A DNA stretch of 21,136 bases from a virus. Below the pieces are notes generated by a model. That model saw only the letters and a program-made list of their open reading frames with translations, did no database searches and was not told the DNA's origin. The stretch is taken from positions 1-21,136 of IMG/VR virus record IMGVR_UViG_3300037042_003263; one strand, written 5' to 3'. Below are positions 1-16,047 of the stretch, piece after piece; the stretch's first letter is position 1, and each line of letters begins with the position of its first letter. Both the position numbers and the translations under genes were made by a program.

Positions 1-278
1 CCAGTTACGGTTGATGCATCTCCCGTGGGTCCCGTCGGGCCGGTCGGTCCGGTCGGGCCGGTAGGCCCCGCGACCCCAGTCGGCCCAGTCGCCCCAGTCG
101 GACCCGTTGCGCCTGTATCGCCCGCAAGCCCCGTTGGACCCTGCGCGCCAGCAGCGCCTGTCGCCCCGGTCGGCCCGGTTGGGCCAGCGACACCATCCGG
201 TCCTGTCGGGCCTGTCGGGCCGGTTGGCCCAGTTACGGTTGATGCAGCTCCCGTGGGTCCCGTCGGGCCAGTCGGACC
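1..278. repeat. In-frame direct repeat inside the collagen-like gene
   Basis: About 50 bases at 1-50 recur at 229-278 with only a few mismatches (for example bases 19-20 versus 247-248). The offset is 228 bp, exactly 76 codons, so both copies are in frame and encode the same T-G-P-T-G-P-T-G-[A/D]-A-S-T-V block. The pattern suggests duplication or recombination within the fibre stalk. Part of the repeat may continue beyond the left edge. Confidence 0.8.
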
Positions 279-449
279 AGCGCCGCCACCACCGCCGACC
301 TCGACGTCAACGCGCTGGTTCGCCGGATCATTCGTGACCGACGAGCTTCCGATGATATTGATATTCGGCTGTTGACCCACGGGTACGCCATCCGCCTGGA
401 TGACCGGCGGCCCGAATTCTACCAGTCCCGGCCACGGGGACAGGCTCAT
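1..449 (-). CDS. Collagen-like tail fibre or head-fibre protein, 5' part only
   Basis: I translated this gene by hand from the ATG at 449; it stays open to the window edge (about 149 codons seen), so the C-terminus is missing. The TGA of the upstream coiled-coil gene overlaps its ATG (TGATG). Residues 1-50 are a unique head, ending in a run of glycines (about 50-54). From about residue 55 the protein is almost pure Gly-X-Y triplets, mainly G-P-T, with short breaks reading A/D-A-S-T-V-T. Collagen-like triple helices of this kind are known in phage tail fibres and head fibres, where they form rigid trimeric stalks. The position at the end of the structural module fits a fibre. The opposite strand also reads as Gly-Pro-Val repeats, but that is a mirror of this sequence. 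Family is clear; which virion part it belongs to is inference. Confidence 0.82.
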
Positions 450-1736: not shown

Positions 1737-2714
1737 TTACGCCGGAGCGTTGACGACGGTCAGGCCGCTATCGCTGGCTGCCGCGGCAGTCATCGCCATA
1801 TAGACGTCGCCGCTGGCGGTCGTCTCGACATTCGTACAGCCGGTGAACCAGCAATTGAGCATCTGCAGGAGACCGCCCGGAGCCGCGTTGACATTCGCCG
1901 CCTGCGTCATCGCCGATGAGCCGCCCGAACTGGTCGACGCCAGGAAGCTGCAATTCGTGAACCGCGCGTACCGGTCGATGCCGCCGGCGCCGATCAGGAT
2001 ATGCGCCGCATTTGAGCCCGAACCGGTCAGGTAGGATTCGAACACGCAGTTGTTGAAGTGATTGCGCGGACTGCCGCCGGCGATCTCCAGCGTATAGTTC
2101 GCGGCCGTGCGGGCGACGGTATCGACGCCGAACACGCAGCTATCGAACGTGCATTCGCCGGTATCGCCGGAGAGAACGAAATCCCGGCTGCCGGTATGCG
2201 CCGCCGCCAGTGCCGCGCCGAAGCCCATAAACTCGACGCCGAAGTAACCGTTGCGGCCGCCGGTATCCGACCACAGCACCTGCGCACTGTTGTCCGCGAA
2301 GCCGTAGAACGTGCCGATGTTCATGAACATGCAGCCGGCCGCCGTCACCGAAATGAACGGTGTGAACACCGTCGCATCCGATGCCATGGAAATCCGGCTG
2401 CGCTTGCCGCGCATCAGCGGGTTGCTGACACCGATGAGATGCGTCTGGGCCTTGTTCCAGACGATCGTCTCGTCGATATACATCGTCCCCTTAAAGATGA
2501 TGACGTCGTTGTTGTTCGCCGTGCAGGCTGCCAGCGCCGTGTTGATGTCCGTGAACGGACTTTCCAGCGTGCCGGAACCGCCCGGACTCGCCTGCGTGGT
2601 CGTGCCGGTGGGCTGCTGAACCCAGTAGTAGTTACCGGTGAACGGCAGCGGGACGCCGGCGACCCAGGGAACACCGAAGCTCGTGGCACCGTTAGGAAAA
2701 TTCGTGAATCCCAT
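1737..2714 (-). CDS. Predicted right-handed beta-helix virion protein
   Basis: A 325-aa protein starting M-G-F-T-N-F-P-N-G. Residues about 55-310 show repeated short strands ending in Asn, Cys or Gly turns (for example F-N-N-C-V-F, F-T-N-C-S-F, M-L-N-C-W-F-T-G-C), the signature of a parallel beta-helix (pectate-lyase-like fold). An earlier segment reads as an I-N-T-A-L-A-A-C / D-V-I-I-F-K-G pattern typical of the first helix rungs. Such proteins serve as tailspikes or head-decoration proteins; its place soon after the major capsid gene favours a head-associated role, as inference. No catalytic residues are assigned. The start is 2 bp after the HNH gene stop. Confidence 0.68.
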   Translation of the reverse strand: MGFTNFPNGATSFGVPWVAGVPLPFTGNYYWVQQPTGTTTQASPGGSGTLESPFTDINTALAACTANNNDVIIFKGTMYIDETIVWNKAQTHLIGVSNPLMRGKRSRISMASDATVFTPFISVTAAGCMFMNIGTFYGFADNSAQVLWSDTGGRNGYFGVEFMGFGAALAAAHTGSRDFVLSGDTGECTFDSCVFGVDTVARTAANYTLEIAGGSPRNHFNNCVFESYLTGSGSNAAHILIGAGGIDRYARFTNCSFLASTSSGGSSAMTQAANVNAAPGGLLQMLNCWFTGCTNVETTASGDVYMAMTAAAASDSGLTVVNAPA

Positions 2715-2715
2715 T

Positions 2716-3300
2716 TTAAATCTCCTGACTTGGGTCCCAAACTCGTGGGCGGCTATTGTTTTCTTCTGCGGTGATTACCCGCAAGTTCCAGTGGACATGT
2801 AGCCCGCAAACCGTTTTTCCCCGCAAGGGGACCATGTGGTCCACTTCGTGTTTGACGCCAGTCGCAGCAGTCATGTCGGAAGCATTTTTGTAAATGCGCC
2901 CAGTGCGCCCAGTGCGCCCAGCATCTGCGCTAGACAGCCATTCCGGTGTGGCATTTAACCGAAACGCAATCCTTTCCATAGCATCTTGGCGCACACGATG
3001 CGGGTTCGCTTTTTTCCACGCCGCCTTCATCTCGGCATGAGCCGCCTTGTTTGTTGACTGCCATGATGTCCCCTCCGCCCGTTTCTGGGCTTCGTGGACG
3101 CGCGCCTTTTCCCGAATCACATCACCGTTCTTGGCGTAGTGATTTCTGGTGGCCCTTCTGCCCCATGCGCGCTGGCACTCAATGCAAGAACGGCGTGCCG
3201 TAGACCGCTCGCACACATGGCCTGCTTTGCAGGGCTGGCCGGTGAAGTACCGATCAGCACCGCATCGCTTGGCTTCTGTGTATGAGGACGGCATGTTCAT
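2716..3300 (-). CDS. Free-standing HNH endonuclease, homing type
   Basis: A 194-aa protein. The N-terminus carries Cys pairs (C-x9-C-x5-C and C-x2-C spacing, about residues 13-42), likely a zinc-binding treble-clef/ribbon module. The middle is a basic helical linker. The C-terminus has the HNH core: V-D-H-M-V-P-L (first His, about residue 153), C-G-L-H-V-H-W-N-L (Asn about residue 171) and a final N-N-S-R. Freestanding HNH enzymes of this kind are mobile genes in phages. It is wedged between the major capsid gene and the beta-helix gene with 24-bp and 1-bp gaps. A short in-frame triplet repeat (R-T-G-R-T-G-R, bases 2903-2932) lies before the HNH core. Start at 3300 or 3294; neither has a strong ribosome site. 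Confidence 0.85.
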   Translation of the reverse strand: MNMPSSYTEAKRCGADRYFTGQPCKAGHVCERSTARRSCIECQRAWGRRATRNHYAKNGDVIREKARVHEAQKRAEGTSWQSTNKAAHAEMKAAWKKANPHRVRQDAMERIAFRLNATPEWLSSADAGRTGRTGRIYKNASDMTAATGVKHEVDHMVPLRGKTVCGLHVHWNLRVITAEENNSRPRVWDPSQEI

Positions 3301-3324
3301 GCGGCTACTCTATCACACTTTCCG

Positions 3325-4230
3325 TCAGGTCGCGCCCTGGCTGCCCCACGAGCCGCGGAAATTCGACACGCCGAACGAATAGCGTTCGATCGCCGACACT
3401 TTCACCGACTGGGTATCCGGGTCGGTGTACATGTCGGTTTCGAGGGCTTCACGTTCGTAGTGCTTGAAGGAGCCGTCGCAATCGGTCTGCAGGAACCACG
3501 CGTTCGCGTCGGTGAAGTAGTGGTTGAGCGACGCGCCGCCCGGCACGCTGCCCATATTGTAGACGGCAGAGATGTCGTTGTTGGCGGTGTTGGTGCGATA
3601 CGCCGAGCCGAGGATGCGGTCCGCGGTGAACTGCAGGCCGTTGGGGACCAGCAATTTCGTGACCTTGAACTGCTTCCGGAGGCCGGCGGCGTCCTTGAAG
3701 TTGGCGATGCCGATGATGGCCTGTTCGAGCGACGTCTCGTTGAGATCCGCCTGGACAGTGAATGTGTTGGCCACCGTGCCATTGTCGATCGGATGCGTCG
3801 TCGAGTAGACCGGCTTGCCGTCGCCGATCGGGTAGGAGGTCGAGAACCCGTTGTTGAAGATCGATGCGCCGAGGACTTCCTTGGTCTGCGCCATGGACGA
3901 CTTCAGGGCCTTCGCCTGCAGCGGGAACGCCGACTTGTAGAGGTTGTCCTTGATCGCCTGGCGGGTGATGATGAACCCAACGGCGACGTAGCGGTGCAGG
4001 TAATTGGTGATCGAACGCTGCCCCATGTCGTCGTAGACGGTGCTGGCGCCTTCAGCCTTGATCTGCGCCAAGCCGAGGAGCTTGGTTTCGACCTCGATTT
4101 CCTGCTGCATGTCGGAAGTGTGCTTCTCGAATGCCTCGGTCCATTCCGCCGGGAAGTCTCGGTAATCACCAAAGACCGCCGCGAGGCCGGGGCGCAGGAG
4201 GGACCGGATGGCAGTAGTGTTAATGGCCAT
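3325..4230 (-). CDS. Major capsid protein (Mu gpT-like / HK97 fold)
   Basis: A 301-aa protein with an excellent ribosome site (AAGGAGG) about 10 bases before the ATG at 4230. It begins M-A-I-N-T-T-A-I-R-S-L-L-R-P-G and has the layout of the Mu-like major head subunit family: an N-terminal helical region, an E-V-E-T-K strand near residue 46, a Y-D-D-M-G segment, and a central T-H-P-I-D-N-G-T loop (about residue 144), related to the S/T-x-x-H-P motif of this family. The C-terminus has an F-x-x-D-A-W-F-L-Q-T-type strand and ends G-S-W-G-S-Q-G. It forms the icosahedral shell after assembly on the scaffold. The putative scaffold, a conserved structural protein and portal lie upstream, as expected. 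No slippery site for a C-terminal extension is evident. Confidence 0.82.
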   Translation of the reverse strand: MAINTTAIRSLLRPGLAAVFGDYRDFPAEWTEAFEKHTSDMQQEIEVETKLLGLAQIKAEGASTVYDDMGQRSITNYLHRYVAVGFIITRQAIKDNLYKSAFPLQAKALKSSMAQTKEVLGASIFNNGFSTSYPIGDGKPVYSTTHPIDNGTVANTFTVQADLNETSLEQAIIGIANFKDAAGLRKQFKVTKLLVPNGLQFTADRILGSAYRTNTANNDISAVYNMGSVPGGASLNHYFTDANAWFLQTDCDGSFKHYEREALETDMYTDPDTQSVKVSAIERYSFGVSNFRGSWGSQGAT

Positions 4231-4244
4231 GATTCATGTCCTCC

Positions 4245-4844
4245 TTACACGCCCGACGTGCCGACGGACTTCAGTTCGTGGGTGTTCCACGTAACCAGCC
4301 AGTTGGCATACGAGCCGACCACGTTCCCGGGGGTGGGATCGAGGCCCATGATTTTCAGGTTCAGCGTCGCAGTGGTGTCCTCCGACGCGTTGTTGATGGT
4401 GGTGCCGCTGATGTAGCTCGGCGCAGCGCCTGCCTGGACGTAGAAGTTGATGTTCAGGTTGACGTCGGTGAGCGCCAGCGGCGTGCCGGCCGCGCCGGAA
4501 CCGTTGGTTTCCTGCATCGTCATGACCAGGTTGGGGTCATCCTCGATGAAGGCGGTCGCGTTGGCCGAACCGAAGGTCGCCTGTGCGGCTGGCCAGTACG
4601 GCAAATTCTGCAGGGTGCCGGTCGTGTCGGTGAACTGGATGCCGGTGAACACACCGCGCACGGGGCTGCCCGCGACGCCGATGCCGATCGTGCCGTCATT
4701 CAGAGAAATGACCGGATCATACTGATAGACAGCCGTCGGATAGGCGGACGCAATGGGATATGCGTTCTGCGCGCCGTTCCAGGGGCTGCCATTGAGGTAG
4801 CGGATCGGCTTGCAGCCGTTACCGCGATTCGTACCATAGGACAT
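4245..4844 (-). CDS. Conserved phage structural protein encoded before the major capsid gene
   Basis: The supported start is the ATG at 4844 (M-S-Y-G-T-N), which has AAAGGAAG about 8 bases upstream; a longer open frame reaches 4934 but lacks such a site. The product is 199 aa, Gly/Asn/Thr-rich and beta-type, with the early pattern K-P-I-R-Y-L-N-G-S-P-W-N-G that I associate with phage virion proteins found next to Mu-like capsid genes. No catalytic motif, signal peptide or membrane helix is visible. The major capsid gene starts 14 bp after its stop with its own strong ribosome site, so the two are probably co-transcribed. Likely a head-decoration or head-stabilising protein, by inference. Confidence 0.65.
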   Translation of the reverse strand: MSYGTNRGNGCKPIRYLNGSPWNGAQNAYPIASAYPTAVYQYDPVISLNDGTIGIGVAGSPVRGVFTGIQFTDTTGTLQNLPYWPAAQATFGSANATAFIEDDPNLVMTMQETNGSGAAGTPLALTDVNLNINFYVQAGAAPSYISGTTINNASEDTTATLNLKIMGLDPTPGNVVGSYANWLVTWNTHELKSVGTSGV

Positions 4845-4982
4845 GGCTATACTTCCTTTCGTGAAGCGATGTTCGCTGACGATTTCCCGCGCGTATCGCG
4901 CGACGTGGCTGAGGAAGTTAACCAGCCAAACCATGTCCGACGTTGCCGTCGAGGGCGCCTGTTGCAGGTGGCCTATCTGCGT

Positions 4983-5011
4983 AGATTACGTTATTCGTTA
5001 TACCGTGTAAA
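4983..5011 (-). promoter_or_regulatory. Candidate sigma70-like promoter for the capsid genes
   Basis: On the minus strand TTTACA (5011-5006) is followed after 17 bases by TAATCT (4988-4983). This lies in the only sizeable gap of the structural module (4845-5114) and would start an mRNA about 130 bases before the 199-aa gene. The -35 box is good but the -10 box is weak, so this is only a candidate. Confidence 0.3.
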
Positions 5012-5033
5012 GCGGTTTTTATAGAGTGGTGGT

Positions 5034-5070
5034 GGGGCCGCCGCCGGAGGGTTAGGGCAGCGACGGCCCC
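5034..5070. other. GC-rich stem-loop in the gap upstream of the capsid genes
   Basis: GGGGCCGCCG at 5034-5043 pairs with CGACGGCCCC at 5061-5070 (nine pairs, one mismatch) around a 17-base loop. It lies just after the stop at 5115 and before the candidate capsid promoter in the direction of transcription. No T-run follows on either strand, so it is not a standard intrinsic terminator. It could mark a processing or pause site. Apart from this hairpin and the candidate promoter I see nothing in 4845-5114. Confidence 0.45.
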
Positions 5071-5114
5071 GACGCCAGCGCCGCGGGACAGGGGGAACAC
5101 GGCGCAGCGTTCTG

Positions 5115-5603
5115 TTAATCCTGGAACTCCGGTTTATCCGTCACGCGCTCGAACTGGACGCGGCCGGAATTGTTGAACGTCGGTGCGCCGCCGAGTCCTT
5201 CCTGCTGCCAGGCGATGCCTTCCATGACGACGCGGTTTTCTGATTCAAGCTCCTCGCGCCGGCGCCGGAAATCCTTGGTCGGCATTTCGCAGAGGATCAA
5301 CCCGCCTTCCGCGATGATGCTTTCGTTGGACTGCATGACGCCGGAAATGTTGATCATCGGGAACATATCGGGATGACGATCACGCGGGACCGGCGACCAA
5401 CCGGCGCGGATTTTCTTGGAGATGTGCGTGTTGTCCGGCTGGTTCATCGATGCCGAGCGGATCCACGCATAGGTCATGCCGTTGGGAATGACGTGCTGTG
5501 GAATGTGCAGGGTGCTCTGAAAGACGCTCTGCAGGCTTTCGCGGTGGTTCGCCCGACGGGTTTCCGCGCCGCGCGACTGGGCCTGGCGTGATTGATGTGG
5601 CAT
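5115..5603 (-). CDS. Conserved phage head-region protein of unknown role
   Basis: The start is taken as the ATG at 5603 (M-P-H-Q-S), preceded by AGGACACCCAA; the open frame runs further to 5654 without a better site. The 162-aa product has a basic, Gln/Arg-rich N-terminus. A core follows: Y-A-W-I-R near residue 47, then K-K-I-R-A-G-W-S-P-V-P, then G-G-L-I-L-C-E-M-P near residue 102, and a charged helix E-E-L-E-S-E. I recognise this core from uncharacterised proteins encoded beside scaffold and capsid genes in other tailed phages, but no function is established that I can name. It is soluble and follows the putative scaffold gene by 14 bp. Confidence 0.65.
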   Translation of the reverse strand: MPHQSRQAQSRGAETRRANHRESLQSVFQSTLHIPQHVIPNGMTYAWIRSASMNQPDNTHISKKIRAGWSPVPRDRHPDMFPMINISGVMQSNESIIAEGGLILCEMPTKDFRRRREELESENRVVMEGIAWQQEGLGGAPTFNNSGRVQFERVTDKPEFQD

Positions 5604-5617
5604 TTGGGTGTCCTTTC

Positions 5618-6697
5618 TTACTGCCGAGCTCTGTCGGACTGTTCGGTTTTCCATTTGGTGATTGCGTAGGACTTCATGGCCTCGCCGAAATCCTTCACGG
5701 GCTTGCCGGTCTTGGGGTCTTTGATCAGGCCCTGCGTCATGTAGCGGCGCACCATGTCCTTCTCGTCGGCGCTCAGGCTGACTTTCGTGCTGGGCGTGCT
5801 GGCCAAGCCGCCATTGCTGGCCCGGGTCGCCGGGGCCGTATCCGGTCGGCCGCCGTTCATGGCCGGGACCTTGCTGCCGTTCGGCTTTTCCAGATCGACG
5901 ATGTTGGCGAACCGATCAGGGTATTTTGCCTGAACAAAGTCCTCGATTTCCTTGAAGTATTCCGGAGACTTGCCGATTTCGTCACCGCGTCCGGCCTCGA
6001 TATATTCGGCTTCGATCACATTGGCGTAGCTGACGGCGACCTTGTGCAGCAACGGGTCGTAATCGTCGGATTCCGGATTGAACCATGTCGTGCCGGCGAT
6101 CCATTTCTGGGCCTCCGGCGCCATGGTCGGCTGTTGCTGTTGCTGCTGGCGTTCCTGCTGTTCCGGGACACGCTCGCCGCGATGTTCAGTCTGCTGGGTT
6201 TCCTTCTTCGGCTGCCGGGCCTTGAACCGATCGATCTCGGTCTTTTCAGACGCCCATTTATTAAGCTCAATGGTGGCATCGCCCATCTTCTCCGGGTCGC
6301 CGGTTGCCATGGCATCCGCGTATGCGCGCTTGGCAGACTCAAGGCTGACGCTGACCGTGCGCTCATAGTTCGCGAAATTGGCCCGGTCCAACTGGGCTGA
6401 CCGCTGGGCCTCTTTCTCGGCCTGCTGCCGCCACTCGTCGCGCTCGCGTTCCAGCTTCTGCGCGTATTCCAGCGCCTCCTGCCGTTCGCGGGTCAGCGTG
6501 TTGATGCGCTTGTTGGCCGGCACGCGGTTTCTCTGCTTGTCAGCTGTGGCTGCCGCAGCGGCCTTGGCCGTCGCGTCCTCGTCGGCAACGGAATCCGCTG
6601 TCGATAGGTCCTCGTCTGAAAGTTCGACATCTACCGGCAGGTTCTCGTCGTCGCCGGTATCAATTGTGGTGTCCTTCTCGCCGTCCATGATATTCAT
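5618..6697 (-). CDS. Putative scaffolding protein
   Basis: A 359-aa, highly charged protein starting at 6697 with GAGG seven bases upstream (an ATG at 6688 is the alternative). Residues about 1-50 are acidic and disordered. Residues about 60-175 are helical and coiled-coil-like (repeated E-R-E-R, Q-K-L-E-R, A-E-K-E-A). A Gln-rich stretch follows (about 175-190), then W-I-A-G-T-T-W-F-N-P-E-S-D-D-Y-D, and a final helix. Coiled coil, acidity, absence of Cys and the position between portal and major capsid gene are those expected of a scaffold that directs procapsid assembly. Scaffold sequences diverge fast, so the call rests on composition, length and place, not on a motif. Confidence 0.66.
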   Translation of the reverse strand: MNIMDGEKDTTIDTGDDENLPVDVELSDEDLSTADSVADEDATAKAAAAATADKQRNRVPANKRINTLTRERQEALEYAQKLERERDEWRQQAEKEAQRSAQLDRANFANYERTVSVSLESAKRAYADAMATGDPEKMGDATIELNKWASEKTEIDRFKARQPKKETQQTEHRGERVPEQQERQQQQQQPTMAPEAQKWIAGTTWFNPESDDYDPLLHKVAVSYANVIEAEYIEAGRGDEIGKSPEYFKEIEDFVQAKYPDRFANIVDLEKPNGSKVPAMNGGRPDTAPATRASNGGLASTPSTKVSLSADEKDMVRRYMTQGLIKDPKTGKPVKDFGEAMKSYAITKWKTEQSDRARQ

Positions 6698-6705
6698 CTG
6701 CTACC

Positions 6706-7227
6706 TCACATCCTGTCCGTCACATTGGCGGCCATCACGTCGTTCGGATCCTTGATGACGGCCATGATCTTGTCGTCCGCGATGATGCCGACCGCCACGG
6801 ATTCGCGATACGTGATCTGGAAGCACTCATAGCGCGGAATCACCACCCAATCGCCGACCTTGCACCACGGGCTGACATAGCGCGGCGTCCCGTCGGCATG
6901 CGTGCCCTTGTAGGCGTCCGGTCCGACAGCCACCACCAGCGCGGCCACCGACGTGTAGCGGTCGCGCGCAGCCGCCTGACCGGGCAGGTAGATCGTCGCT
7001 TCCGTGCCGTCGTCGCGCACGAGCGTTTTGTATTCTTCCGGTCGAACGTAAATCTTGACCGCGATCTGATACCCGCATGGCCGCAGATGCAGCACGTCGC
7101 CGGTAATCTCGCGAATCTGTTCGTCGATCAGCGTCTGCGCCTCGACCTCTTCATGCGGCTCGATATAGCTCAATGGCATTGCCGGCCCGTTTGGCAGCGA
7201 CGCCGCCCCGTTCGTAACCCCTGTCAT
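6706..7227 (-). CDS. GroES-like (10-kDa co-chaperonin fold) phage protein
   Basis: A 173-aa protein whose ATG at 7227 overlaps the TGA of the upstream gene (ATGA). After a 45-residue variable lead it shows the GroES-type order: V-K-I-Y-V-R-P-E-E-Y (about 57-66), I-Y-L-P-G-Q (about 79-84), a mobile-loop-like charged stretch, A-L-V-V-A-V-G-P-D-A-Y (about 95-105), V-G-D-W-V-V-I-P-R (about 124-132) and a final I-I-A-D-D-K-I-M-A-V-I. Phage proteins of this type can replace host GroES during capsid folding (as T4 gp31 does) or may be repurposed structural parts. Its place directly before the putative scaffold fits capsid assembly. The fold match is good; the chaperone function is inferred. Confidence 0.7.
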   Translation of the reverse strand: MTGVTNGAASLPNGPAMPLSYIEPHEEVEAQTLIDEQIREITGDVLHLRPCGYQIAVKIYVRPEEYKTLVRDDGTEATIYLPGQAAARDRYTSVAALVVAVGPDAYKGTHADGTPRYVSPWCKVGDWVVIPRYECFQITYRESVAVGIIADDKIMAVIKDPNDVMAANVTDRM

Positions 7228-8253: not shown

Positions 8254-10671
8254 CTAAACGCCGGTCTGTTTCCGGCCTTCGTTAACGACATCCCGGACAT
8301 ACCCGACATCCGGATTCTGGTTGTCAGCGATATTGGCCGTCGCCCGAACGAGTTCAATCTCTTCCTTGGACTCACGGTCCAGCGTCTTGGTCTGGGCATC
8401 GACGGCGATCTTCTCGCGCGACACGTCGACCTTGGCCATGCCGACGGCGAATTCGCCTTCCGCCTTCTTGGCCTTGATCTCCAGATCACGGGCGGCAATC
8501 TGCTCCGCCGTCATATCCGGACCGCCGCGTTCGGCTTCCAGCAACTTGACGGCCTGCGCGACCATGACGGCAATCTGGTTCTCGACTTCCGGCGGCAACT
8601 GCGCGCCCGGCGGCGGCAACTGGATGCCCAGCACGCGCTCGACGTCGACGCGCATCTTCAGCGCCAGATGTTCCGCGATATGCGCCTGCATGGCCGGCAT
8701 GTCGCCGATCATCTTGTGAACCTCGATATGGGCCTGGTGATCCTGCGCCAGCCCGGCTTTCAGCGGCTGGTTCTGCATGGCGTTCATGTTCTCGGTCAAC
8801 GGGTCCAGCGGCTGCGCCTGCTGCGGCGGCGGCATGATGGCGTTGATCTGGTCATCCGGCATGCCCATGGCCTCATAGACCTGCCGATACAGCAGCGGGA
8901 TATTGTGCGAACCCGGAGGCGCCTGCAGACCCATGGTGAGCTTGGCCTGTGCCGTGACCATCCGCTGCGACGACGACGTGATGTTCGGATCGGATACCGG
9001 GATGACGTCGATTTCGTCACTGAAATCCCCGCGCATGATCGTCGACATGCCGCCGCGGACCGGGAACGGATACGGCTCCTCCGGCAGATTGGCGCCGAAT
9101 TCGGACTTCAGCAGCGCCAACTCTTCCTTCATCGCCTGATGACCGAACTTGATCATCTGGGTTTCGATCTTGTTGGCGGCTTCCAGCAGCGCCAGCGTGG
9201 TGCCGACCGGGGCATCCTGCCGCCCGTCGCCGACCGCAATTTCGGTGGCGCCTGATAGGCGGCGGCCGTTTTCCTGCGTATGCTGGAGCGTCGCCAGCGA
9301 CACCGGCGAGACTTCCTTGTACGGCATTGCCATGAACGCCTGGTTGATCGGCATGCCGGCCGTGTCGATCTCGACGAACTGGCACGGCCCGATCATCAGG
9401 CTGTTTTCTTCCATCCGCAGGCCCTTCTGCTTCAGGCCGCCGGGGAACATATTGAGGGTATTCGCGTCAATGATCTGACGGGTCAGTGATGTTGCCGTTT
9501 TCGTCGAATTGCCGAGCACGTGGCACATGCCGAGGCCGTAGAAGCCCGGGCCCTGCAGCAGCTTGTAATGGACGAATTGCTGCTTTTTCTGGAAAGCCGG
9601 ATCGCCCTGTTTCCAGTTCCGGTAGATGGCGAGGATCTTGTTGGTTTCCGGGTCGAGGGTGATCCGGTAGGGGAGCGGCAGTCCGGACGGCACATGCGCG
9701 CCTTCGATGCGGTGCTCGTAACCCTTCAGGTCCAGGTCGACATGGGATTCGTAGAACGTGAAATCTTCGTCGCCGTTGTAAAGCGACTGGTTGTTCGGAT
9801 TGTACTGGCCGGATGCCTGATCGATTGCGGCCTCGAGTACCGTTTGCTGGACGTCAGGGCCGCTGTCGATGAGTTCGATATCCCGCCAGAACCCGCTGAG
9901 TTGCAGGCCGCGGACCTGCCGGCGCGACATCGTGCTGATCTGCGTCATGCGCGGGCAGTCGTAGAGGGATTTGGTGTCGTAGGAGACGACGAAATGGTCG
10001 GCGCGGATGAACGGGCTGACCGGGCGTCTGAGAATGGGGTGCTGGTAGACCTTCTTGAACGTGCTGCCCGCGAAATACCACCAGAACAGCATTTGCGCAT
10101 AGTCAGGATAATATTCCGGCGCCAGCTTGGTGAGATAGAGGTTCATCCAATCCTTGACGCGCCGGGCCTTGTCCTCGCGGGCGGTATCCGAATACCCTAT
10201 GAGTTGGGTCTTGACCGGGCCGGATGGCGGGATGAGCTCGGCGTTGGCGTTGGCGGTGCCGCGCAGGATGGCTTCCATGAGCAGCGGGTCGACGGCTCCG
10301 GAGGCACCCTTGAACGGAAACTGTCGGTCCTCAATCTTGATCCCCAGCAGTTTCATGCCTTCCGCGAGTTGGCCTTCCCAGTCCTGCCGGCTGTTTTTGT
10401 CCTCGCCGACCGCCTCAACCAGCCGTTCGGCTATGGCGTTGAGATCCGTCTCCCGCATGTGCTCGGCCAGATTGGCACCGTGGTCGCGGGATGGGTCGCT
10501 GTCTGTGATGAGTCTGCTGGAGAAATCGATGATTGCGCCGCCGTCGGGCGTATCGCTGACCGTCGCGCCGTCGATATCGGCTGTGAAATCCAGAATATCG
10601 GGATCATCCGACAGGTCAATTTCTGTCGGGCCGTCGTCAACGATCCGTTCCGCTCGGCGCCCTGCGTTCAT
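8254..10671 (-). CDS. Portal protein
   Basis: An 805-aa protein, in the size range of the large P22-type portals. After an acidic, disordered lead (about 1-60) comes the conserved portal region: W-E-G-Q-L-A-E-G-M-K-L-L-G, F-P-F-K-G-A-S-G-A-V-D-P-L-L-M-E-A, R-G-T-A-N-A-N-A-E-L-I-P-P-S-G-P-V (about 95-150), then F-W-W-Y-F-A-G-S-T-F-K-K-V. The C-terminal third (about 600-805) is helical, Gln/Ala/Glu-rich and coiled-coil-like, as in the barrel. The portal forms the dodecameric ring through which the terminase pumps DNA. The ATG at 10671 lacks any ribosome site but lies just after a good promoter, so the message may be leaderless. Confidence 0.88.
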   Translation of the reverse strand: MNAGRRAERIVDDGPTEIDLSDDPDILDFTADIDGATVSDTPDGGAIIDFSSRLITDSDPSRDHGANLAEHMRETDLNAIAERLVEAVGEDKNSRQDWEGQLAEGMKLLGIKIEDRQFPFKGASGAVDPLLMEAILRGTANANAELIPPSGPVKTQLIGYSDTAREDKARRVKDWMNLYLTKLAPEYYPDYAQMLFWWYFAGSTFKKVYQHPILRRPVSPFIRADHFVVSYDTKSLYDCPRMTQISTMSRRQVRGLQLSGFWRDIELIDSGPDVQQTVLEAAIDQASGQYNPNNQSLYNGDEDFTFYESHVDLDLKGYEHRIEGAHVPSGLPLPYRITLDPETNKILAIYRNWKQGDPAFQKKQQFVHYKLLQGPGFYGLGMCHVLGNSTKTATSLTRQIIDANTLNMFPGGLKQKGLRMEENSLMIGPCQFVEIDTAGMPINQAFMAMPYKEVSPVSLATLQHTQENGRRLSGATEIAVGDGRQDAPVGTTLALLEAANKIETQMIKFGHQAMKEELALLKSEFGANLPEEPYPFPVRGGMSTIMRGDFSDEIDVIPVSDPNITSSSQRMVTAQAKLTMGLQAPPGSHNIPLLYRQVYEAMGMPDDQINAIMPPPQQAQPLDPLTENMNAMQNQPLKAGLAQDHQAHIEVHKMIGDMPAMQAHIAEHLALKMRVDVERVLGIQLPPPGAQLPPEVENQIAVMVAQAVKLLEAERGGPDMTAEQIAARDLEIKAKKAEGEFAVGMAKVDVSREKIAVDAQTKTLDRESKEEIELVRATANIADNQNPDVGYVRDVVNEGRKQTGV

Positions 10672-11226: not shown

Positions 11227-11417
11227 GGCGTCGTCTCCGTTGGTTTTTCCAACACCTGACAGCGATGGCAGATGAACGCGCCCGGCTCCGGCTCGAGCCA
11301 TCTGGCCGCCCGGGCGAAGCGTGTGAGGGCGTCCGTGTTCAGCGCGGCCGTCGATAGTTCGACCCCGCACCGGTCGCAGGCGGCGATGTAATCGGTAATC
11401 CGGCGTTCTTTGATCAT
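11223..11417 (-). CDS. Small zinc-ribbon protein
   Basis: A 64-aa protein coupled to the large-terminase stop by ATGA and to the next gene by another ATGA. It has two Cys pairs, C-D-R-C (residues about 14-17) and C-H-R-C (about 50-53), a typical zinc-ribbon spacing. The lead is basic (M-I-K-E-R-R). It may bind nucleic acid or protein; no specific family recognised. Confidence 0.62.
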   Translation of the reverse strand: MIKERRITDYIAACDRCGVELSTAALNTDALTRFARAARWLEPEPGAFICHRCQVLEKPTETTP

Positions 11418-12628
11418 CCGTAAATAGCCTCCGGTATATCGCGCACCTCATCCGGCGGCGGCACATTGGCGTCATCCGATCGCCACACCCAGCCGGATTC
11501 CTGCGCCCTGATAATAGCCTGTGTCATGGTATCCACCAAATCTCGGCTGGCGCCCTTCGGAAAACTCGCGAACTGCGACAGCGCCACGTCCGCAAAATGC
11601 CGCGGGCGCGTGAAATCCGGCGGTAGGCCCGGCACCCAGATATGGCCGCTTTCCAGCGTCGGCGTCGTGAACCGCACGCGCTGCGTCTTGTCGCCGTACC
11701 GATCGGGATTGAACCCTGACACCGTGACACCCGCCCGCTGCAGATCGCGGATGAGGATCTTACCCGTCGTCTTATCTTCCACCAGGATCATATCCGGTTT
11801 CAGCGCACGCTTGGCAGGCTTCGGCGGCTTGTCCAAATCCCCGTCGTCCAGGTAGTTTTTCGACAGGCGCTTGGCGTGCTCGCGGAGTTCATTGTATTCA
11901 CACCGCTTGCGCCATGCCGCCAGAAGGATCATATTCGGCAGTTCGTGCTGGTCCTTGAACACACCCCATGTCGTGCAGGCGTTGAACGCCGCCTCCTTTT
12001 TTTCCGACAGCGCGGTATCCCACGATTGGATGATGTAATCCAGTTTCGGGGTCGCTTCCTGCGTCCACAGCCGGAACCATTTCCGTTTGATAATCCCGCC
12101 TTCGCCGGGCGCCGGGCGTTGTTGAAGCTGGCCGGAGATGTTGTATTCGGTGCGCAGTTCTCGTTTCAGCCGGTCGAGTTCCGGGCGACCGACGCGCTCG
12201 GGCCATAGCAGGTCGTTCTCTTCCTTGCGCGGGTCACGCCATTTCTTGCCGTTCGTCGACGGCAGCACGACGGTCACGCACCGACTGCCCGGCTCGAATT
12301 CCATGGGCAGCCTCAGATGCACCCAGCCGTTATCCTTGGCGGACGTGATGATGCCACTCAGATCCTTCTCGTGAATGCGCTGCTGCACGACGATGCGGCG
12401 ACCGGTCCGGAAGTCGTTCAAGCGCGTCGGCATGACATCTTCCCAGAAATGCTGCACGACATCGAGGCCGGCTTCGCTGACGTCGGAGGCCGAGTTGGGA
12501 TCGTCTAGACAGTTGTGGACTAGAATCCCATTGGCGTAGTAGTTGCGATTGTTGGCGACGCTGATGTTGTAGACCGGCGCCGCTGCTGACGACAATTTCC
12601 TGACGGATGTGACCTTAGAAGTTTTCAC
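11414..12628 (-). CDS. terL: Large terminase, C-terminal half, with C-terminal split intein at its start
   Basis: A 404-aa protein starting with GTG at 12628; AGGTGA lies just upstream, inside the endonuclease gene, which it overlaps by 14 bp. Residues 1-39 are the C-intein: block F (V-Y-N-I-S-V-A-N-N-R-N-Y-Y-A-N-G, 19-34) and block G (I-L-V-H-N, ending at Asn39), followed by the +1 residue Cys40. Residues 40-404 are terminase: L-D-D-P (end of Walker B, 41-44), the coupling segment V-Q-Q-R-I-H-E-K-D-L, and the RNase-H-like nuclease with S-W-D-T-A (Asp204), V-E-D-K-T-T-G (Glu284) and R-D-L-V-D (Asp363/Asp366). After trans-splicing to the product of 14332-13520 the mature terminase would be 539 aa. 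The tail is joined to the zinc-ribbon gene by ATGA. Confidence 0.9.
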   Translation of the reverse strand: MKTSKVTSVRKLSSAAAPVYNISVANNRNYYANGILVHNCLDDPNSASDVSEAGLDVVQHFWEDVMPTRLNDFRTGRRIVVQQRIHEKDLSGIITSAKDNGWVHLRLPMEFEPGSRCVTVVLPSTNGKKWRDPRKEENDLLWPERVGRPELDRLKRELRTEYNISGQLQQRPAPGEGGIIKRKWFRLWTQEATPKLDYIIQSWDTALSEKKEAAFNACTTWGVFKDQHELPNMILLAAWRKRCEYNELREHAKRLSKNYLDDGDLDKPPKPAKRALKPDMILVEDKTTGKILIRDLQRAGVTVSGFNPDRYGDKTQRVRFTTPTLESGHIWVPGLPPDFTRPRHFADVALSQFASFPKGASRDLVDTMTQAIIRAQESGWVWRSDDANVPPPDEVRDIPEAIYG

Positions 12629-13810
12629 AGTTCACCTGCTTTATCCACCCGCGGTCTATCGCCCGCTCAAATTCTCTCCCAAGCCATCCGCGCCGTATCG
12701 CATCGATCGCTGAAAACGGATTCGGCAATAGCGGTATTGACGATTGCAACAACCCACCGCGATCATATTTTGAGAGCACCGGCGCGCCTGACTTTACAAA
12801 GACGCGGTTCTTAAACTTAGAAAGCGAGTGTGCGATTTGTAGACGCATCTCTGGATCAGCCATAACCCTCTTCTGGTTCTCGGACAATTTCTTCAACTCA
12901 TCCGGATTGGATAGGCGCGCAAGATTTCTCTGTCGGGCGCCTTCTCTAAAGTCTGGATTGTCCCAATGCTTCGCGCGCAGCCGTCTCTTTACATCGGTTT
13001 TGTTTTTTGAAAATGCGAACCCCATCTGCAATGGCTTCTGGCGGGCGGACAAAATCATGGCCCGGTACTCCGGGTCGGCCCACTTTTGCTTAATGCTCTC
13101 TGCCCGCTGCGCTTTTCTTTCTTCAGTCCAGTACTGTTTTTGAATTTCCAGGTTTTTCTTCATGGCAGATGGCGTTTTGTGAGTGCGAGATAATTTCTTT
13201 CTGCGATTTATCTCCGTCTCGGAGGCCGCCCCGTGTACGCCATCGCCGCCGATCGTATTGTTGTAGCCGTTCGGCCACTTTGAATTAAACGCCACGATGG
13301 CCTTGATCTCTAGGTCCTTCAGATAATCGGCGTCGTTAGCAATCACCAAAACTCTTTTCTTGATGGTATCCGCACCATATTTTTTAATTGCCTTGGCGAG
13401 ATATGTTTTGTTCCGCACCGATGCCGAGACGTGTTGCTTAAACCGCCACTCTATGTCGCGCGTAGTTATGCCGACATACTTCTTGTCATTCGGGAATGTC
13501 AGCATGTACAGGCAACCCATCAGAACCTAACCACTTCATCGCCGTCACAAATTTCCGATGCCCTAATATATCCCTTTCCAACCACAAACACCGAATGATT
13601 TTCCGTTAGGCGCAGTGTTGTTCCATCGTCCAGTTCAATCTCCACCATGTCGGTCGCATGATTGGCGTGCCGCATTTCAATTTGGCGCAACTCGGATAGG
13701 CAAAGGTCGTGATTGAAAGACCAGACTGCACCACACCACGAGTGTTCCACGATATCGCCAATCATCATCGGACCGCTTTCCGTGCTGATCATCGCGTCAT
13801 ACGGCAGGCA
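12512..13810 (-). mobile_element. Split intein plus homing endonuclease cassette inserted in terL
   Basis: The element spans from intein Cys1 (13810) to the intein's last Asn (12512). It consists of N-intein (96 codons, 13810-13523, then TGA), the GIY-YIG gene (13520-12615) and the C-intein (39 codons, 12628-12512). The 96+39 residues equal a normal mini-intein of 135 aa with all splice residues present: Cys1, T-x-x-H, His-Asn at the end, and +1 Cys. Removing it joins G-A-D-I-F to C-L-D-D-P, giving an uninterrupted terminase Walker B region. The two terminase halves are in the same reading frame; the endonuclease is in another. Arrangements of split intein plus endonuclease ('fractured genes') are known from environmental phage DNA; this is the same logic in a terminase. 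Confidence 0.87.
12615..13520 (-). CDS. Free-standing GIY-YIG homing endonuclease between the two intein halves
   Basis: A 301-aa protein. The GIY-YIG domain spans about residues 1-95: L-Y-M-L (Tyr5) in place of GIY, K-K-Y-V-G-I-T (Tyr15), R-F-K-Q-H (Arg26 is the likely catalytic Arg), L-E-I-K-A-I (catalytic Glu71) and G-Y-N-N-T-I-G-G-D-G (about 85-94). Residues 105-240 are basic, with repeated W/x-D/N-P-E/D-x-R patches (A-D-P-E-Y-R, D-N-P-D-F-R, A-D-P-E-M-R), resembling NUMOD-type DNA-binding repeats. Its ATG overlaps the TGA of the terminase N-half (TGATG), and its end overlaps the GTG of the C-half by 14 bp. The DNA is visibly richer in A+T than its neighbours, a sign of recent arrival. 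It probably cuts intein-less terminase genes to drive spread of the whole insert. Confidence 0.9.
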   Translation of the reverse strand: MGCLYMLTFPNDKKYVGITTRDIEWRFKQHVSASVRNKTYLAKAIKKYGADTIKKRVLVIANDADYLKDLEIKAIVAFNSKWPNGYNNTIGGDGVHGAASETEINRRKKLSRTHKTPSAMKKNLEIQKQYWTEERKAQRAESIKQKWADPEYRAMILSARQKPLQMGFAFSKNKTDVKRRLRAKHWDNPDFREGARQRNLARLSNPDELKKLSENQKRVMADPEMRLQIAHSLSKFKNRVFVKSGAPVLSKYDRGGLLQSSIPLLPNPFSAIDAIRRGWLGREFERAIDRGWIKQVNCENF

Positions 13811-14332
13811 AAAAATATCCGCGCCTTCCCCCGTGACCGTGCCGGTAATCGACGACGTGACGCGATACCCGCCGGCCGTATTGTCGAACCGCACCTTCGT
13901 GTTCTGGTCGAGCGCCAGCGTGAACGCCGACCCCCATCTGCGCTGATACCAGTCTGATTCCAGCACGCGGCGCGACCGAACGTGATCGCGTCCGGAGAGC
14001 TTATCCGAATAGCTGACATACATGAACTGCAATTGCGGATGATCGATCCATGCCCATGGCACGAGGGCGACGGATACCAATGAGGATTTGCTGGTCCGCG
14101 GCGGTTGATTGATCAGCAGATCGCGTATCTGCCCGTCGACGACGGCCTGGACGTGCTCGGCAATAGCACCGATCGCCCAGCCCCCTATGAACGGCCGAGC
14201 GCCTTCCCATTGTGGCCACGCCTGCTGCAGAAATTCATACAGACTCCCGCGCGCTGCCCGGCGCCGCATCAGTTCCTGCGCGGCTTCCTCCGGTGTCGGC
14301 GGTTTCAGGATGGCGGTCACGCGCGCATCCAC
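13520..14332 (-). CDS. terL: Large terminase, N-terminal half, ending in the N-terminal split intein
   Basis: A 270-aa protein. Residues 1-174 are the terminase ATPase N-terminal part: the P-loop-type motif Q-P-P-R-T-S-K-S-S-L (76-85), F-M-Y-V-S-Y-S (103-109), and G-E-G-A-D-I-F (168-174), the first part of Walker B. Residues 175-270 are the N-intein: Cys175 is the intein's first residue (block A C-L-P-Y-D-A-M-I), followed by E-L-D-D-G-T-T-L and block B T-E-N-H-S-V-F-V-V (Thr243, His246), G-Y-I-R-A-S-E and G-D-E-V-V. The frame then stops, at the usual split point of natural split inteins. Alone this half lacks the acidic residues of Walker B and the nuclease. It overlaps the end of the glycosyltransferase gene by 16 bp. 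Confidence 0.9.
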   Translation of the reverse strand: MDARVTAILKPPTPEEAAQELMRRRAARGSLYEFLQQAWPQWEGARPFIGGWAIGAIAEHVQAVVDGQIRDLLINQPPRTSKSSLVSVALVPWAWIDHPQLQFMYVSYSDKLSGRDHVRSRRVLESDWYQRRWGSAFTLALDQNTKVRFDNTAGGYRVTSSITGTVTGEGADIFCLPYDAMISTESGPMMIGDIVEHSWCGAVWSFNHDLCLSELRQIEMRHANHATDMVEIELDDGTTLRLTENHSVFVVGKGYIRASEICDGDEVVRF

Positions 14333-15351
14333 TCCCCATTCCTGACAATCCGTTCATCGTTCGGCGCCATCTCAACAGCCTTCTCCCAATACCCGCGCGC
14401 GGCGTCCTTCAGGCCCATATGCCACGCCGCGACGCTCGCGATATCGTAGGCACCATAGCCCCATGCTTCGGCTGTGACCAGATAGTGCCCGGGCCGTTCC
14501 GTGATCGACAGCGCCCGCGTCGCCGCCTGCAATGCGCCGATCCAATCGTTTCGTTTCAGTCGGAACTGCGCCAGTTCATACCACGCGTCGCGACTGTACG
14601 GCGCTTCTGATACAGCACCCAGATACCAGCCTTCGTCGCCGGTCATGCGCCCGAGAAACCGCATGCTGGCCGCCCGCTCCTCGTTCCATTTCGCGGTCGG
14701 CAGTGTCAGGTGGCGCTGCAGTTCCGCAATGCCTTCCTCGGTGCGACCCTGAAACATATATTCGCGCCCGAGATAATGGGATGCCCGGTCGTCCATCGGG
14801 TTTTCGCGGACCGAGAGTTCCAGCAGCGGCAGATACGAACTGCGGGGTTTGCTGTCGTCCGCGTGATGGTGGATCAGCGTCGCCGTGGTCGTGACGATGT
14901 GTTCCGCGCCGGATGGGCAGATCGTTTCGTGGACGGCGCCCTTCCACTGGTAGCCGTTGCGATGGTGCGCGCGGTCGGCCTGGAATTGCACGTTCGGCGT
15001 GCCGTCGGCATTCCAGTTCCAGACGTAGTTATAGCGCAGGCGCGTTGCTTCCGGCGTCCAGACAGATTCGACGATCTCACGCCAGCCGGGCACCAGGATT
15101 TCATCGAGGTCGAGGGTGATGCAGAGGTCGATGTCGGCGGGCAGCAGAGCGAGTGCCGCGTTGCGGGCGTGGTCGAAGCGCCAGGGGGAGATGTGGATGC
15201 GGTACACGCACGGGTACGGCGGCATGTTCCTCGTGGCGTCCGTCGACCCCGTGTCTGCCAGCAAAATACGGTCCGCGTCGCTGGCAGATTTCGCCCACCG
15301 CTCGACGTGCTTCTCTTCATTCAATGCAATCGCCGCAACCGCAATTCTCAT
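14317..15351 (-). CDS. GT2-type glycosyltransferase with TPR-like C-terminal domain
   Basis: A 344-aa protein; its ATG overlaps the previous TGA (ATGA). Residues 1-165 form a GT-A glycosyltransferase domain: A-L-N-E-E-K (9-14), A-D-T-G-S-T-D (32-38), F-D-H-A-R-N-A (59-65), metal/nucleotide-sugar motif D-L-D-E (81-84) and W-K-G-A-V-H-E (136-142). Residues about 185-340 are TPR-like helical repeats (S-H-Y-L-G-R-E-Y, A-W-Y-E-L-A-Q-F, A-R-G-Y-W-E-K-A-V-E-M-A-P-N). This combination is known in bacterial sugar-transferring enzymes related to cell-surface and peptide glycosylation. It is soluble with no signal. Lying between small and large terminase genes, it may glycosylate virion protein, DNA or a host surface; the target cannot be read from the sequence. 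Confidence 0.82.
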   Translation of the reverse strand: MRIAVAAIALNEEKHVERWAKSASDADRILLADTGSTDATRNMPPYPCVYRIHISPWRFDHARNAALALLPADIDLCITLDLDEILVPGWREIVESVWTPEATRLRYNYVWNWNADGTPNVQFQADRAHHRNGYQWKGAVHETICPSGAEHIVTTTATLIHHHADDSKPRSSYLPLLELSVRENPMDDRASHYLGREYMFQGRTEEGIAELQRHLTLPTAKWNEERAASMRFLGRMTGDEGWYLGAVSEAPYSRDAWYELAQFRLKRNDWIGALQAATRALSITERPGHYLVTAEAWGYGAYDIASVAAWHMGLKDAARGYWEKAVEMAPNDERIVRNGEWMRA

Positions 15352-15590
15352 CTCCGCTTCCTTCTACCAATCCAAGCCTCAGACGGCAGGACCGTATCCA
15401 CCACATGCACGGCACCCTGCTTCTTCAGATATTCCAGCAGGTCCATTAGGTCCATTTCCGTAATATTGTTGCCACATTCATTATAGCAGCGTATCACCAG
15501 ACGGTCGTTCGACCGCATGCGCAATTCGACCTGCATTTCTTCACAATATTCCCTGACCGGAATCGTAGCCAGCGCGACAGACTCACTCAT
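15348..15590 (-). CDS. 80-aa hypothetical protein in the packaging module
   Basis: Start taken at the ATG at 15590, with GAGGTGG immediately before it and an 8-bp overlap with the small terminase gene. The protein has a short beta-type middle (V-E-L-R-M-R-S-N-D-R-L-V-I-R-C-Y) and an acidic helix (M-D-L-M-D-L-L-E-Y-L-K-K), ending in a basic G-R-R-K-R-R. Three Cys are present but not in a clear zinc pattern. No family recognised. It is coupled to the glycosyltransferase by ATGA. Confidence 0.6.
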   Translation of the reverse strand: MSESVALATIPVREYCEEMQVELRMRSNDRLVIRCYNECGNNITEMDLMDLLEYLKKQGAVHVVDTVLPSEAWIGRRKRR

Positions 15591-16047
15591 CCTCCACCTC
15601 GATAACATCCTTGCTGATATCCTTGGACGACGCGATGCGCATCAATTGCTCGTCAGTCATCATCTCGGGCCGAAATCCGTGAGTGACCGAAATATTTGTC
15701 TGCAACAGCCCGAGTAACATCGACTGCAATTTTTTCGCGCCGATCGCGCTGGCATGTTGGCCGTCGTCCAGCGCGCGCTGAAACACGGTTTCCATATCCG
15801 CCACGATACTATCCCGCGTGACCTCCAGCGGCTGCATGCTCGTCTCAATCCGCTCCAGCGCCTTCAACGCGGCGACGATCTCCGGCTTCTGCAACTGCCT
15901 GTTGGCCACCACCGTGATCGGATAGCGCGCGTCGCGGATGCCTGCCCGGATGCACGCCTGCACGGCGTCGCCGGTCAGCCGGTACTGTTCGACGAATACC
16001 GCGTCCTTGTCGGATTGATCGTCGGCGTCGGTGCGGTCGGGGATCAT
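15583..16047 (-). CDS. terS: Terminase small subunit
   Basis: A 154-aa protein with ATGA coupling to the gene before it. Residues about 16-65 match the DNA-binding head of the Terminase_2-type small subunit: A-V-F-V-E-Q-Y-R-L-T-G-D-A-V-Q-A-C-I-R-A-G-I, then a helix and L-Q-K-P-E-I-V-A-A-L. The middle is a long helical segment (oligomerisation, about 65-115) and the tail is acidic (I-E-V-E-D-E). It recognises the packaging site and stimulates the large subunit. Genomic order (small subunit, two genes, large subunit) supports the call. Confidence 0.8.
   Translation of the reverse strand: MIPDRTDADDQSDKDAVFVEQYRLTGDAVQACIRAGIRDARYPITVVANRQLQKPEIVAALKALERIETSMQPLEVTRDSIVADMETVFQRALDDGQHASAIGAKKLQSMLLGLLQTNISVTHGFRPEMMTDEQLMRIASSKDISKDVIEVEDE

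What the first reader, a model, noticed from the sequence alone, without database searches (positions are those of the whole stretch)
11414..14332. Terminase large subunit made from two genes by a split intein, with a GIY-YIG endonuclease gene between the halves
The ATPase half ends in a complete N-intein (Cys1, T-x-x-H block B, 96 aa). The nuclease half starts with a complete C-intein (blocks F and G, terminal His-Asn, +1 Cys, 39 aa). All splicing residues are intact, and the joined exteins give a normal 539-aa terminase with Walker B restored. The gene between is a GIY-YIG homing endonuclease. Known 'fractured gene' systems pair split inteins with free-standing endonucleases, mostly in replication and nucleotide-metabolism genes. 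A phage packaging motor that must be trans-spliced, with a GIY-YIG partner, is to my knowledge little or not described.
Basis: partly seen in the sequence, partly recalled or inferred. Interest (0 to 1): 0.93.

Follow-up and report, generated by a model that had tools for sequence, protein, structure and literature searches.

The report
Phage packaging gene fractured by split intein
An uncultivated phage makes its DNA-packaging motor protein as two pieces that should be glued together by a self-cutting protein splice (a split intein), with a gene-drive-like DNA-cutting enzyme coded between the pieces; it is a clear new example of a known arrangement, and relatives show that it keeps recurring in this one gene.

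Summary
TerL is split at Walker B into TerL-N+IntN (14332-13520) and IntC+TerL-C (12628-11414). A GIY-YIG homing-endonuclease gene lies between (13520-12615), and all three ORFs overlap. The joined exteins align without a gap to uninterrupted TerLs. The 1,299-bp insert is 50.3% GC in a 60.7% window.

It is not a one-off or an assembly error. IMG/VR holds one phage with the same TerL-N+IntN / GIY-YIG / IntC+TerL-C order (two separate assemblies), four with an HNH or HNH-like gene between the halves, one with adjacent halves and no endonuclease, and one with the halves in different places. Unsplit inteins sit at the same and neighbouring positions.

Most likely mechanism: polycistronic expression, class 1 protein trans-splicing to a 539-aa TerL, and spread by the endonuclease. 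Splicing and cutting are inferred, not shown.

Naturally split TerL inteins (AceL-TerL, GOS-TerL) and a fractured gene with a GIY-YIG endonuclease (AceL NrdHF) are published, and Vibrio phage VP-1 carries an unannotated split TerL intein with GIY-YIG. 'All splicing residues intact' is slightly overstated: block F has Asp to Asn and His to Arg, but both recur across this intein lineage.

The parts
13811..14332 (-). TerL N-extein, 174 aa, ATPase part with P-loop PPRTSKS, ends ...TGEGADIF
   Evidence: PHROG terminase large subunit, E 6e-28; aligns to uninterrupted TerL
13523..13810 (-). N-intein, 96 aa: Cys1, blocks A, N2, B (TENH), N4
   Evidence: NCBIfam TIGR01445 above cut-off; PDB NrdJ-1 and DnaE split inteins by sequence; profile match shared with L032, L038, L047, L049, L062
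13520..13522 (-). TGA stop of TerL-N+IntN, sharing one base with the ATG of the endonuclease gene (TGATG)
   Evidence: sequence
12615..13520 (-). GIY-YIG homing endonuclease, 301 aa; Y5, Y15, G17, R26, H30, E71, N87 conserved; helical C-terminal part
   Evidence: Pfam PF01541; PHROG homing endonuclease; invariant residues in A4; model matches I-TevI catalytic domain 1ln0
12512..12628 (-). C-intein, 39 aa: blocks F and G, terminal His-Asn; GTG start inside the endonuclease gene (14-base overlap), AGGTG just upstream
   Evidence: NCBIfam TIGR01443 above cut-off; sequence; profile
11414..12511 (-). TerL C-extein, 365 aa plus stop, begins Cys+1 LDDP (rest of Walker B), nuclease domain
   Evidence: PHROG terminase large subunit, E 1e-40; C-extein tree
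12512..13810 (-). whole inserted element (IntN + endonuclease + IntC), 1,299 bp = 433 codons, 50.3% GC in a window of 60.7%
   Evidence: composition
15583..16047 (-). terminase small subunit (context)
   Evidence: PHROG 51, E 7e-5
8254..10671 (-). portal protein (context)
   Evidence: PHROG 1216, E 2e-31

Best explanation
The phage terL gene is a fractured gene. A class 1 intein of the usual Hint kind sits in the Walker B motif of TerL and is broken at the usual endonuclease position, so that TerL-N+IntN and IntC+TerL-C are separate, overlapping genes of one operon with a GIY-YIG homing endonuclease gene between them. The two precursors should associate through IntN and IntC, splice in trans (Cys1 thioester, Cys+1 branch, Asn cyclisation) and yield a 539-aa TerL with Walker B restored; the unspliced halves should be inactive as a motor because the cut separates the P-loop from the Walker B acids. 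The endonuclease most likely cuts uninterrupted terL alleles at or near this site and so copies the whole 1.3-kb cassette into them. Shown here: anatomy, homology, precise insertion, and recurrence in other phages. Inferred: splicing, requirement for packaging, cutting and homing.
For: Curated intein N and C models, both above cut-off and ending exactly at the extein borders. Gap-free empty-site alignment. The element is compositionally foreign: 50.3% GC against a mean of 60.5% (SD 3.0) for windows of its length. The same three-gene order, site and endonuclease family occur in L030/L032, two assemblies with no difference over the compared terL region, about 2.25 kb; identities to the window are IntN 45%, IntC 47%, endonuclease 32%, exteins 43% and 32%. 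Split TerL inteins occur in L038, L047, L048, L049 and L062, and all keep Cys1, the block B His, terminal His-Asn and Cys+1. A cis mini-intein relative at the same site (L068) models as a Hint fold (pLDDT 91.5) and matches solved inteins including NrdJ-1 and gp41-1. The GIY-YIG catalytic residues are conserved and the model matches I-TevI 1ln0 (TM-score 0.74 by target).
Against: No experiment shows splicing or cutting. Block F departs from consensus at two positions, which could slow C-terminal cleavage. The endonuclease model is weak outside its catalytic domain (mean pLDDT 57.6). No second assembly of the window's own phage was found (very near records may be left out of that search), so its two frame breaks rest on one contig plus homology.
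Confidence: 0.9

Rival explanations
1. The intein is one continuous polypeptide (IntN-endonuclease-IntC) and the two frame breaks are sequencing or assembly errors or programmed frameshifts.
For: The ORFs overlap at both junctions and large contiguous inteins at the same site are common.
Against: Two separate frame changes of opposite sense would be needed. The same breaks occur in L030/L032, assembled twice, and equivalent breaks in L038, L047, L049 and L062. The overlaps are start/stop overlaps with nearby ribosome-binding-like sequence, not evident slippery heptamers.
Confidence: 0.04
2. The intein is dead and the two TerL pieces work as two separate subunits, as some genes split by homing endonucleases do.
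For: Genes split by an endonuclease that remain functional as two peptides are known (a ribonucleotide reductase case is described in PMC10448857). Block F deviates from consensus.
Against: The cut lies inside Walker B between the strand and its acidic residues. All split relatives keep the splicing residues, and the block F changes are shared with unsplit inteins.
Confidence: 0.04
3. The cassette is real and splices, but the GIY-YIG gene is a passenger that no longer homes or serves another role.
For: Endonuclease genes often decay. L038 and L048 keep split TerL without an endonuclease next to it.
Against: The catalytic residues and full catalytic domain are intact. The same family is at the same site in a different TerL lineage.
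Confidence: 0.25

Closest known systems
Fractured genes of Dassa et al. 2009 (split intein plus free-standing endonuclease between the halves)
   Same: host gene broken inside an intein at the usual endonuclease position, free-standing endonuclease between, phage-like source
   Different: host gene is TerL and the endonuclease is GIY-YIG; the original paper could not be read here, only its citations
AceL NrdHF split intein (PMC7891396)
   Same: fractured gene in a phage-like contig with an intervening GIY-YIG endonuclease; IntN 98 aa, IntC 48 aa, typical split
   Different: host gene is ribonucleotide reductase; class 3 intein without Cys1; trans-splicing shown in vitro
AceL-TerL and GOS-TerL split inteins (reviewed in PMC11766414)
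   Same: naturally split inteins in a phage terminase large subunit, class 1
   Different: atypically split (IntN 25 and 37 aa, IntC 104 and 115 aa); apparently at another TerL site (from memory of the extein sequence); trans-splicing shown in vitro
Mycobacteriophage TerL1-e intein (PMC5050341)
   Same: intein in the Walker B motif of TerL, splicing shown
   Different: contiguous, not split
Vibrio phage VP-1 terL (MH363700, L021)
   Same: TerL broken by a split intein with a GIY-YIG relative between the halves (33.5% identity to the window's enzyme)
   Different: other TerL site (HN|CSFLGS), short IntN fused in frame to the endonuclease, plus a contiguous Walker A intein; not annotated as such
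IMG/VR L030/L032 (3300023435_001416, 3300005918_001408)
   Same: same site, same three overlapping genes, homologous intein and GIY-YIG enzyme
   Different: TerL of another lineage, enzyme 32% identical

Membership tests
class 1 intein (Hint), naturally split | Cys or Ser at position 1 | tested here: met
   Cys1 at 13810-13808
class 1 intein (Hint), naturally split | block B T-x-x-H | tested here: met
   TENH in IntN
class 1 intein (Hint), naturally split | terminal Asn with penultimate His and Cys/Ser/Thr at +1 | tested here: met
   HN|C
class 1 intein (Hint), naturally split | block F consensus Asp and His (usual, not strictly defining) | tested here: not met
   Asn and Arg instead. Relatives share them, and AceL NrdHF splices without its block F and G His
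class 1 intein (Hint), naturally split | the two intein halves on separate open reading frames | tested here: met
class 1 intein (Hint), naturally split | protein trans-splicing | not testable with these tools
   needs co-expression
fractured gene (split intein plus endonuclease) | free-standing endonuclease gene between the split-intein halves of one host gene | tested here: met
GIY-YIG homing endonuclease | GIY-YIG catalytic domain with Tyr, Tyr, Arg, His, Glu, Asn | tested here: met
   Pfam over the whole model; invariant residues; fold match to I-TevI
GIY-YIG homing endonuclease | cuts intein-less target and drives homing | not testable with these tools
   patchy distribution over TerL lineages is consistent
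AceL-TerL / GOS-TerL family of split TerL inteins | atypical split with IntN of 25-37 aa | tested here: not met
   IntN is 96 aa against 25 and 37 (PMC11766414)
phage terminase large subunit | P-loop, Walker B and nuclease motifs in the joined exteins | tested here: met

The most novel reading that the evidence does not exclude
The Walker B motif of TerL hosts one old lineage of split inteins that moves among phage TerL lineages, swaps its endonuclease (GIY-YIG, HNH or none), shifts its insertion point by one codon, and in one phage has ended with the two TerL halves in different parts of the genome, giving the series from unsplit to fractured to dispersed in a single gene.
Probability: 0.4. 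Interest if true: 0.65.

Novelty: new member of a known kind. Interest (0 to 1): 0.52.

Why it matters
It extends fractured genes to a typically split intein at the ATPase site of the packaging motor, with a GIY-YIG partner, and shows that this is recurrent rather than a curiosity. The set of relatives (unsplit mini-intein, fractured with two or more endonuclease families, endonuclease lost, halves apart) makes the origin and fate of split inteins testable within one gene. Annotation pipelines will call such phages terL-less or double-terL, and TerL trees or marker searches will misplace them. The small matched IntN/IntC pairs are candidate ligation tools.

Tried and rejected
Klebsiella Jedunavirus and cyanophage TerL hits that seemed to include the C-intein are uninterrupted TerLs with chance N-terminal extension. 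Pseudomonas phage MR14 has a GIY-YIG gene beside terL, but its terL is intact. Direct scans with the endonuclease alone and with TerL-N found no close relative with this architecture; the architecture was found only by a DNA pattern for HN|C-x-DDP and a profile. The genome contigs pattern scan gave 4 hits that were not studied. PDB sequence search with the endonuclease gave nothing. No further assembly of the window's own junction was found. The single-origin test for the split inteins is inconclusive: 2 changes against 6.7 in shuffles, one clade not rejected (p-AU 0.37); the search profile was seeded with split sequences, so sampling is biased. Dassa et al. 2009 was not available in the library.

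Full report
What is there. On the minus strand three ORFs overlap head to tail: TerL-N+IntN 14332-13520, a 301-aa GIY-YIG protein 13520-12615, and IntC+TerL-C 12628-11414. The first junction is TGATG (stop and start share one base). The second is a 14-base overlap in which the GTG start of IntC lies inside the endonuclease gene, with AGGTG four bases upstream. Curated intein N- and C-terminal models are met above their cut-offs at exactly the extein borders. Both exteins are terminase large subunit by PHROG, and the middle protein is GIY-YIG by Pfam and homing endonuclease by PHROG. The window is a 21,136-bp linear IMG/VR record with small terminase, portal and a major-head-protein-like gene around terL.

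The insertion is precise. With the 433-codon element left out, the 539-aa product aligns without a gap at the junction to uninterrupted TerLs: GADIF|CLDDPN against GGDII|CIDDPH (CRP-902), GADII|VLDDPN (L002) and others. The element has 50.3% GC; windows of that length average 60.5% (SD 3.0), and only 0.35% are as low. IntN, endonuclease and IntC therefore look like one foreign unit inside a native gene.

It is recurrent. A DNA pattern for HN|C-x-DDP and a profile scan of IMG/VR gave many TerL inteins in Walker B at neighbouring insertion points: C-xxx-DD (mostly contiguous), C-x-DD (the window's) and C-DD. Split ones: L030 and L032, the same phage assembled from two metagenomes with no difference over the compared terL region, with TerL-N+IntN / GIY-YIG / IntC+TerL-C; L047, L049 and L062, with an HNH-type gene between the halves (the L062 match is below Pfam's cut-off); L037, with an I-HmuI-like gene and a divergent N-intein; L038, with no endonuclease and an ATGA overlap; and L048, where TerL-N+IntN and IntC+TerL-C lie near opposite ends of a 50-kb contig with unrelated small genes on the inner sides. 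The L048 contig shows no end repeat, so its halves are about 45 kb apart, or about 4 kb apart if the genome is circularly permuted. A cis mini-intein (L068) with almost no linker sits at the window's site and models as a Hint fold close to solved inteins.

Evolution. The seven split inteins compared in the tree need only two changes against 6.7 in shuffles, and a single clade is not rejected; sampling is biased because split sequences seeded the profile. In the TerL C-extein tree the window groups with L047, L048, L049 and L002 (96/93), whose insertion point, endonuclease or intein state differ. L032 and L038 group with L068 and L016, which has no intein there (100/100). The same intein plus GIY-YIG combination in two TerL lineages, with members lacking a Walker B intein in both, fits a mobile element. 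L037 lies inside a clade of unsplit TerLs (100/100), so splitting at this site probably happened more than once.

Splicing chemistry. Cys1, block B TENH, HN and Cys+1 are present. Block F reads VYNI...NNRNYY, with Asn for the usual Asp and Arg for the usual His. The Asn is shared by all split ones in the table and by unsplit relatives, and the Arg by L032, L049, L062 and the unsplit L081, so these are lineage traits. AceL NrdHF splices without its conserved block F and G histidines (PMC7891396). I infer trans-splicing is active but this is not shown.

The endonuclease. Tyr5, Tyr15, Gly17, Arg26, His30, Glu71 and Asn87 are invariant in the five aligned relatives and correspond, from my knowledge of I-TevI, to its catalytic set. 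The model is good only in the catalytic domain, which matches I-TevI (1ln0, TM-score 0.74 by target). The rest is helical and probably binds DNA (inference).

What is known. AceL-TerL and GOS-TerL are naturally split TerL inteins of the atypical kind (IntN 25 and 37 aa; PMC11766414). AceL NrdHF is a fractured gene with an intervening GIY-YIG endonuclease (PMC7891396). Mycobacteriophage TerL1-e is a spliced, contiguous intein in Walker B, and TerL is the commonest intein host in those phages (PMC5050341). Vibrio phage VP-1 carries, unannotated, a split TerL intein with a GIY-YIG domain at another site. I found no paper in the searched library on a typically split Walker B TerL intein with a GIY-YIG gene; subscription journals are mostly absent from it.

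Verdict. Real, well supported and functional-looking; a new member of a known kind, with a more interesting family behind it than the single locus.

Noticed in passing
L048/L129/L131 (IMGVR_UViG_3300049175_000049, 50,043 bp): TerL-N+IntN at 2925-3782 and IntC+TerL-C near 48-49 kb, both minus strand, no endonuclease next to either: possible dispersed split terminase.
   Followed up: partly
L021 (Vibrio phage VP-1, MH363700) 2456-5798: TerL carries a contiguous intein at Walker A and a second, atypically split intein whose short IntN runs in frame into a GIY-YIG domain; the annotated start of the second half (4761) is too late and omits block B.
   Followed up: partly
L097, L101, L106, L107, L110, L112, L116, L118, L120, L123, L094: Other fractured genes found by the same profile, by eye ribonucleotide reductase (L101 and L107 with GIY-YIG-like genes), DNA ligase, RNA ligase-like and DNA polymerase III-like hosts, with HNH-like, Vsr-like or GIY-YIG-like genes between the halves.
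   Followed up: partly
L029, L033, L035, L036, L050-L053, L067 and other cis Walker B inteins: Contiguous TerL inteins carry an insert of about 160-250 aa where an endonuclease would be, without an evident endonuclease motif by eye; function unknown.
   Followed up: no
window 2716-3300 (-): HNH-like protein matching PHROG endonuclease VII (E 4e-12) next to the major-head-protein-like gene: a second possible homing endonuclease in this phage.
   Followed up: no
window 6706-7227 (-): Weak GroES co-chaperonin match (PHROG E 5e-7, Pfam just below cut-off) between head genes.
   Followed up: no
window 14317-15351 (-): Glycosyltransferase with TPR repeats (PHROG E 2e-99), its end overlapping the start of TerL-N by 16 bases, lies between the small terminase gene and terL.
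   Followed up: no
L030 2654-2719 vs L032: Two otherwise identical assemblies differ by 15 substitutions packed into 64 bases of the gene downstream of terL, nearly all synonymous: looks like a recombined patch or an assembly joint.
   Followed up: no
window 25-375 (+): Collagen-like GPVGPVGP repeat ORF at the contig edge (strand uncertain).
   Followed up: no
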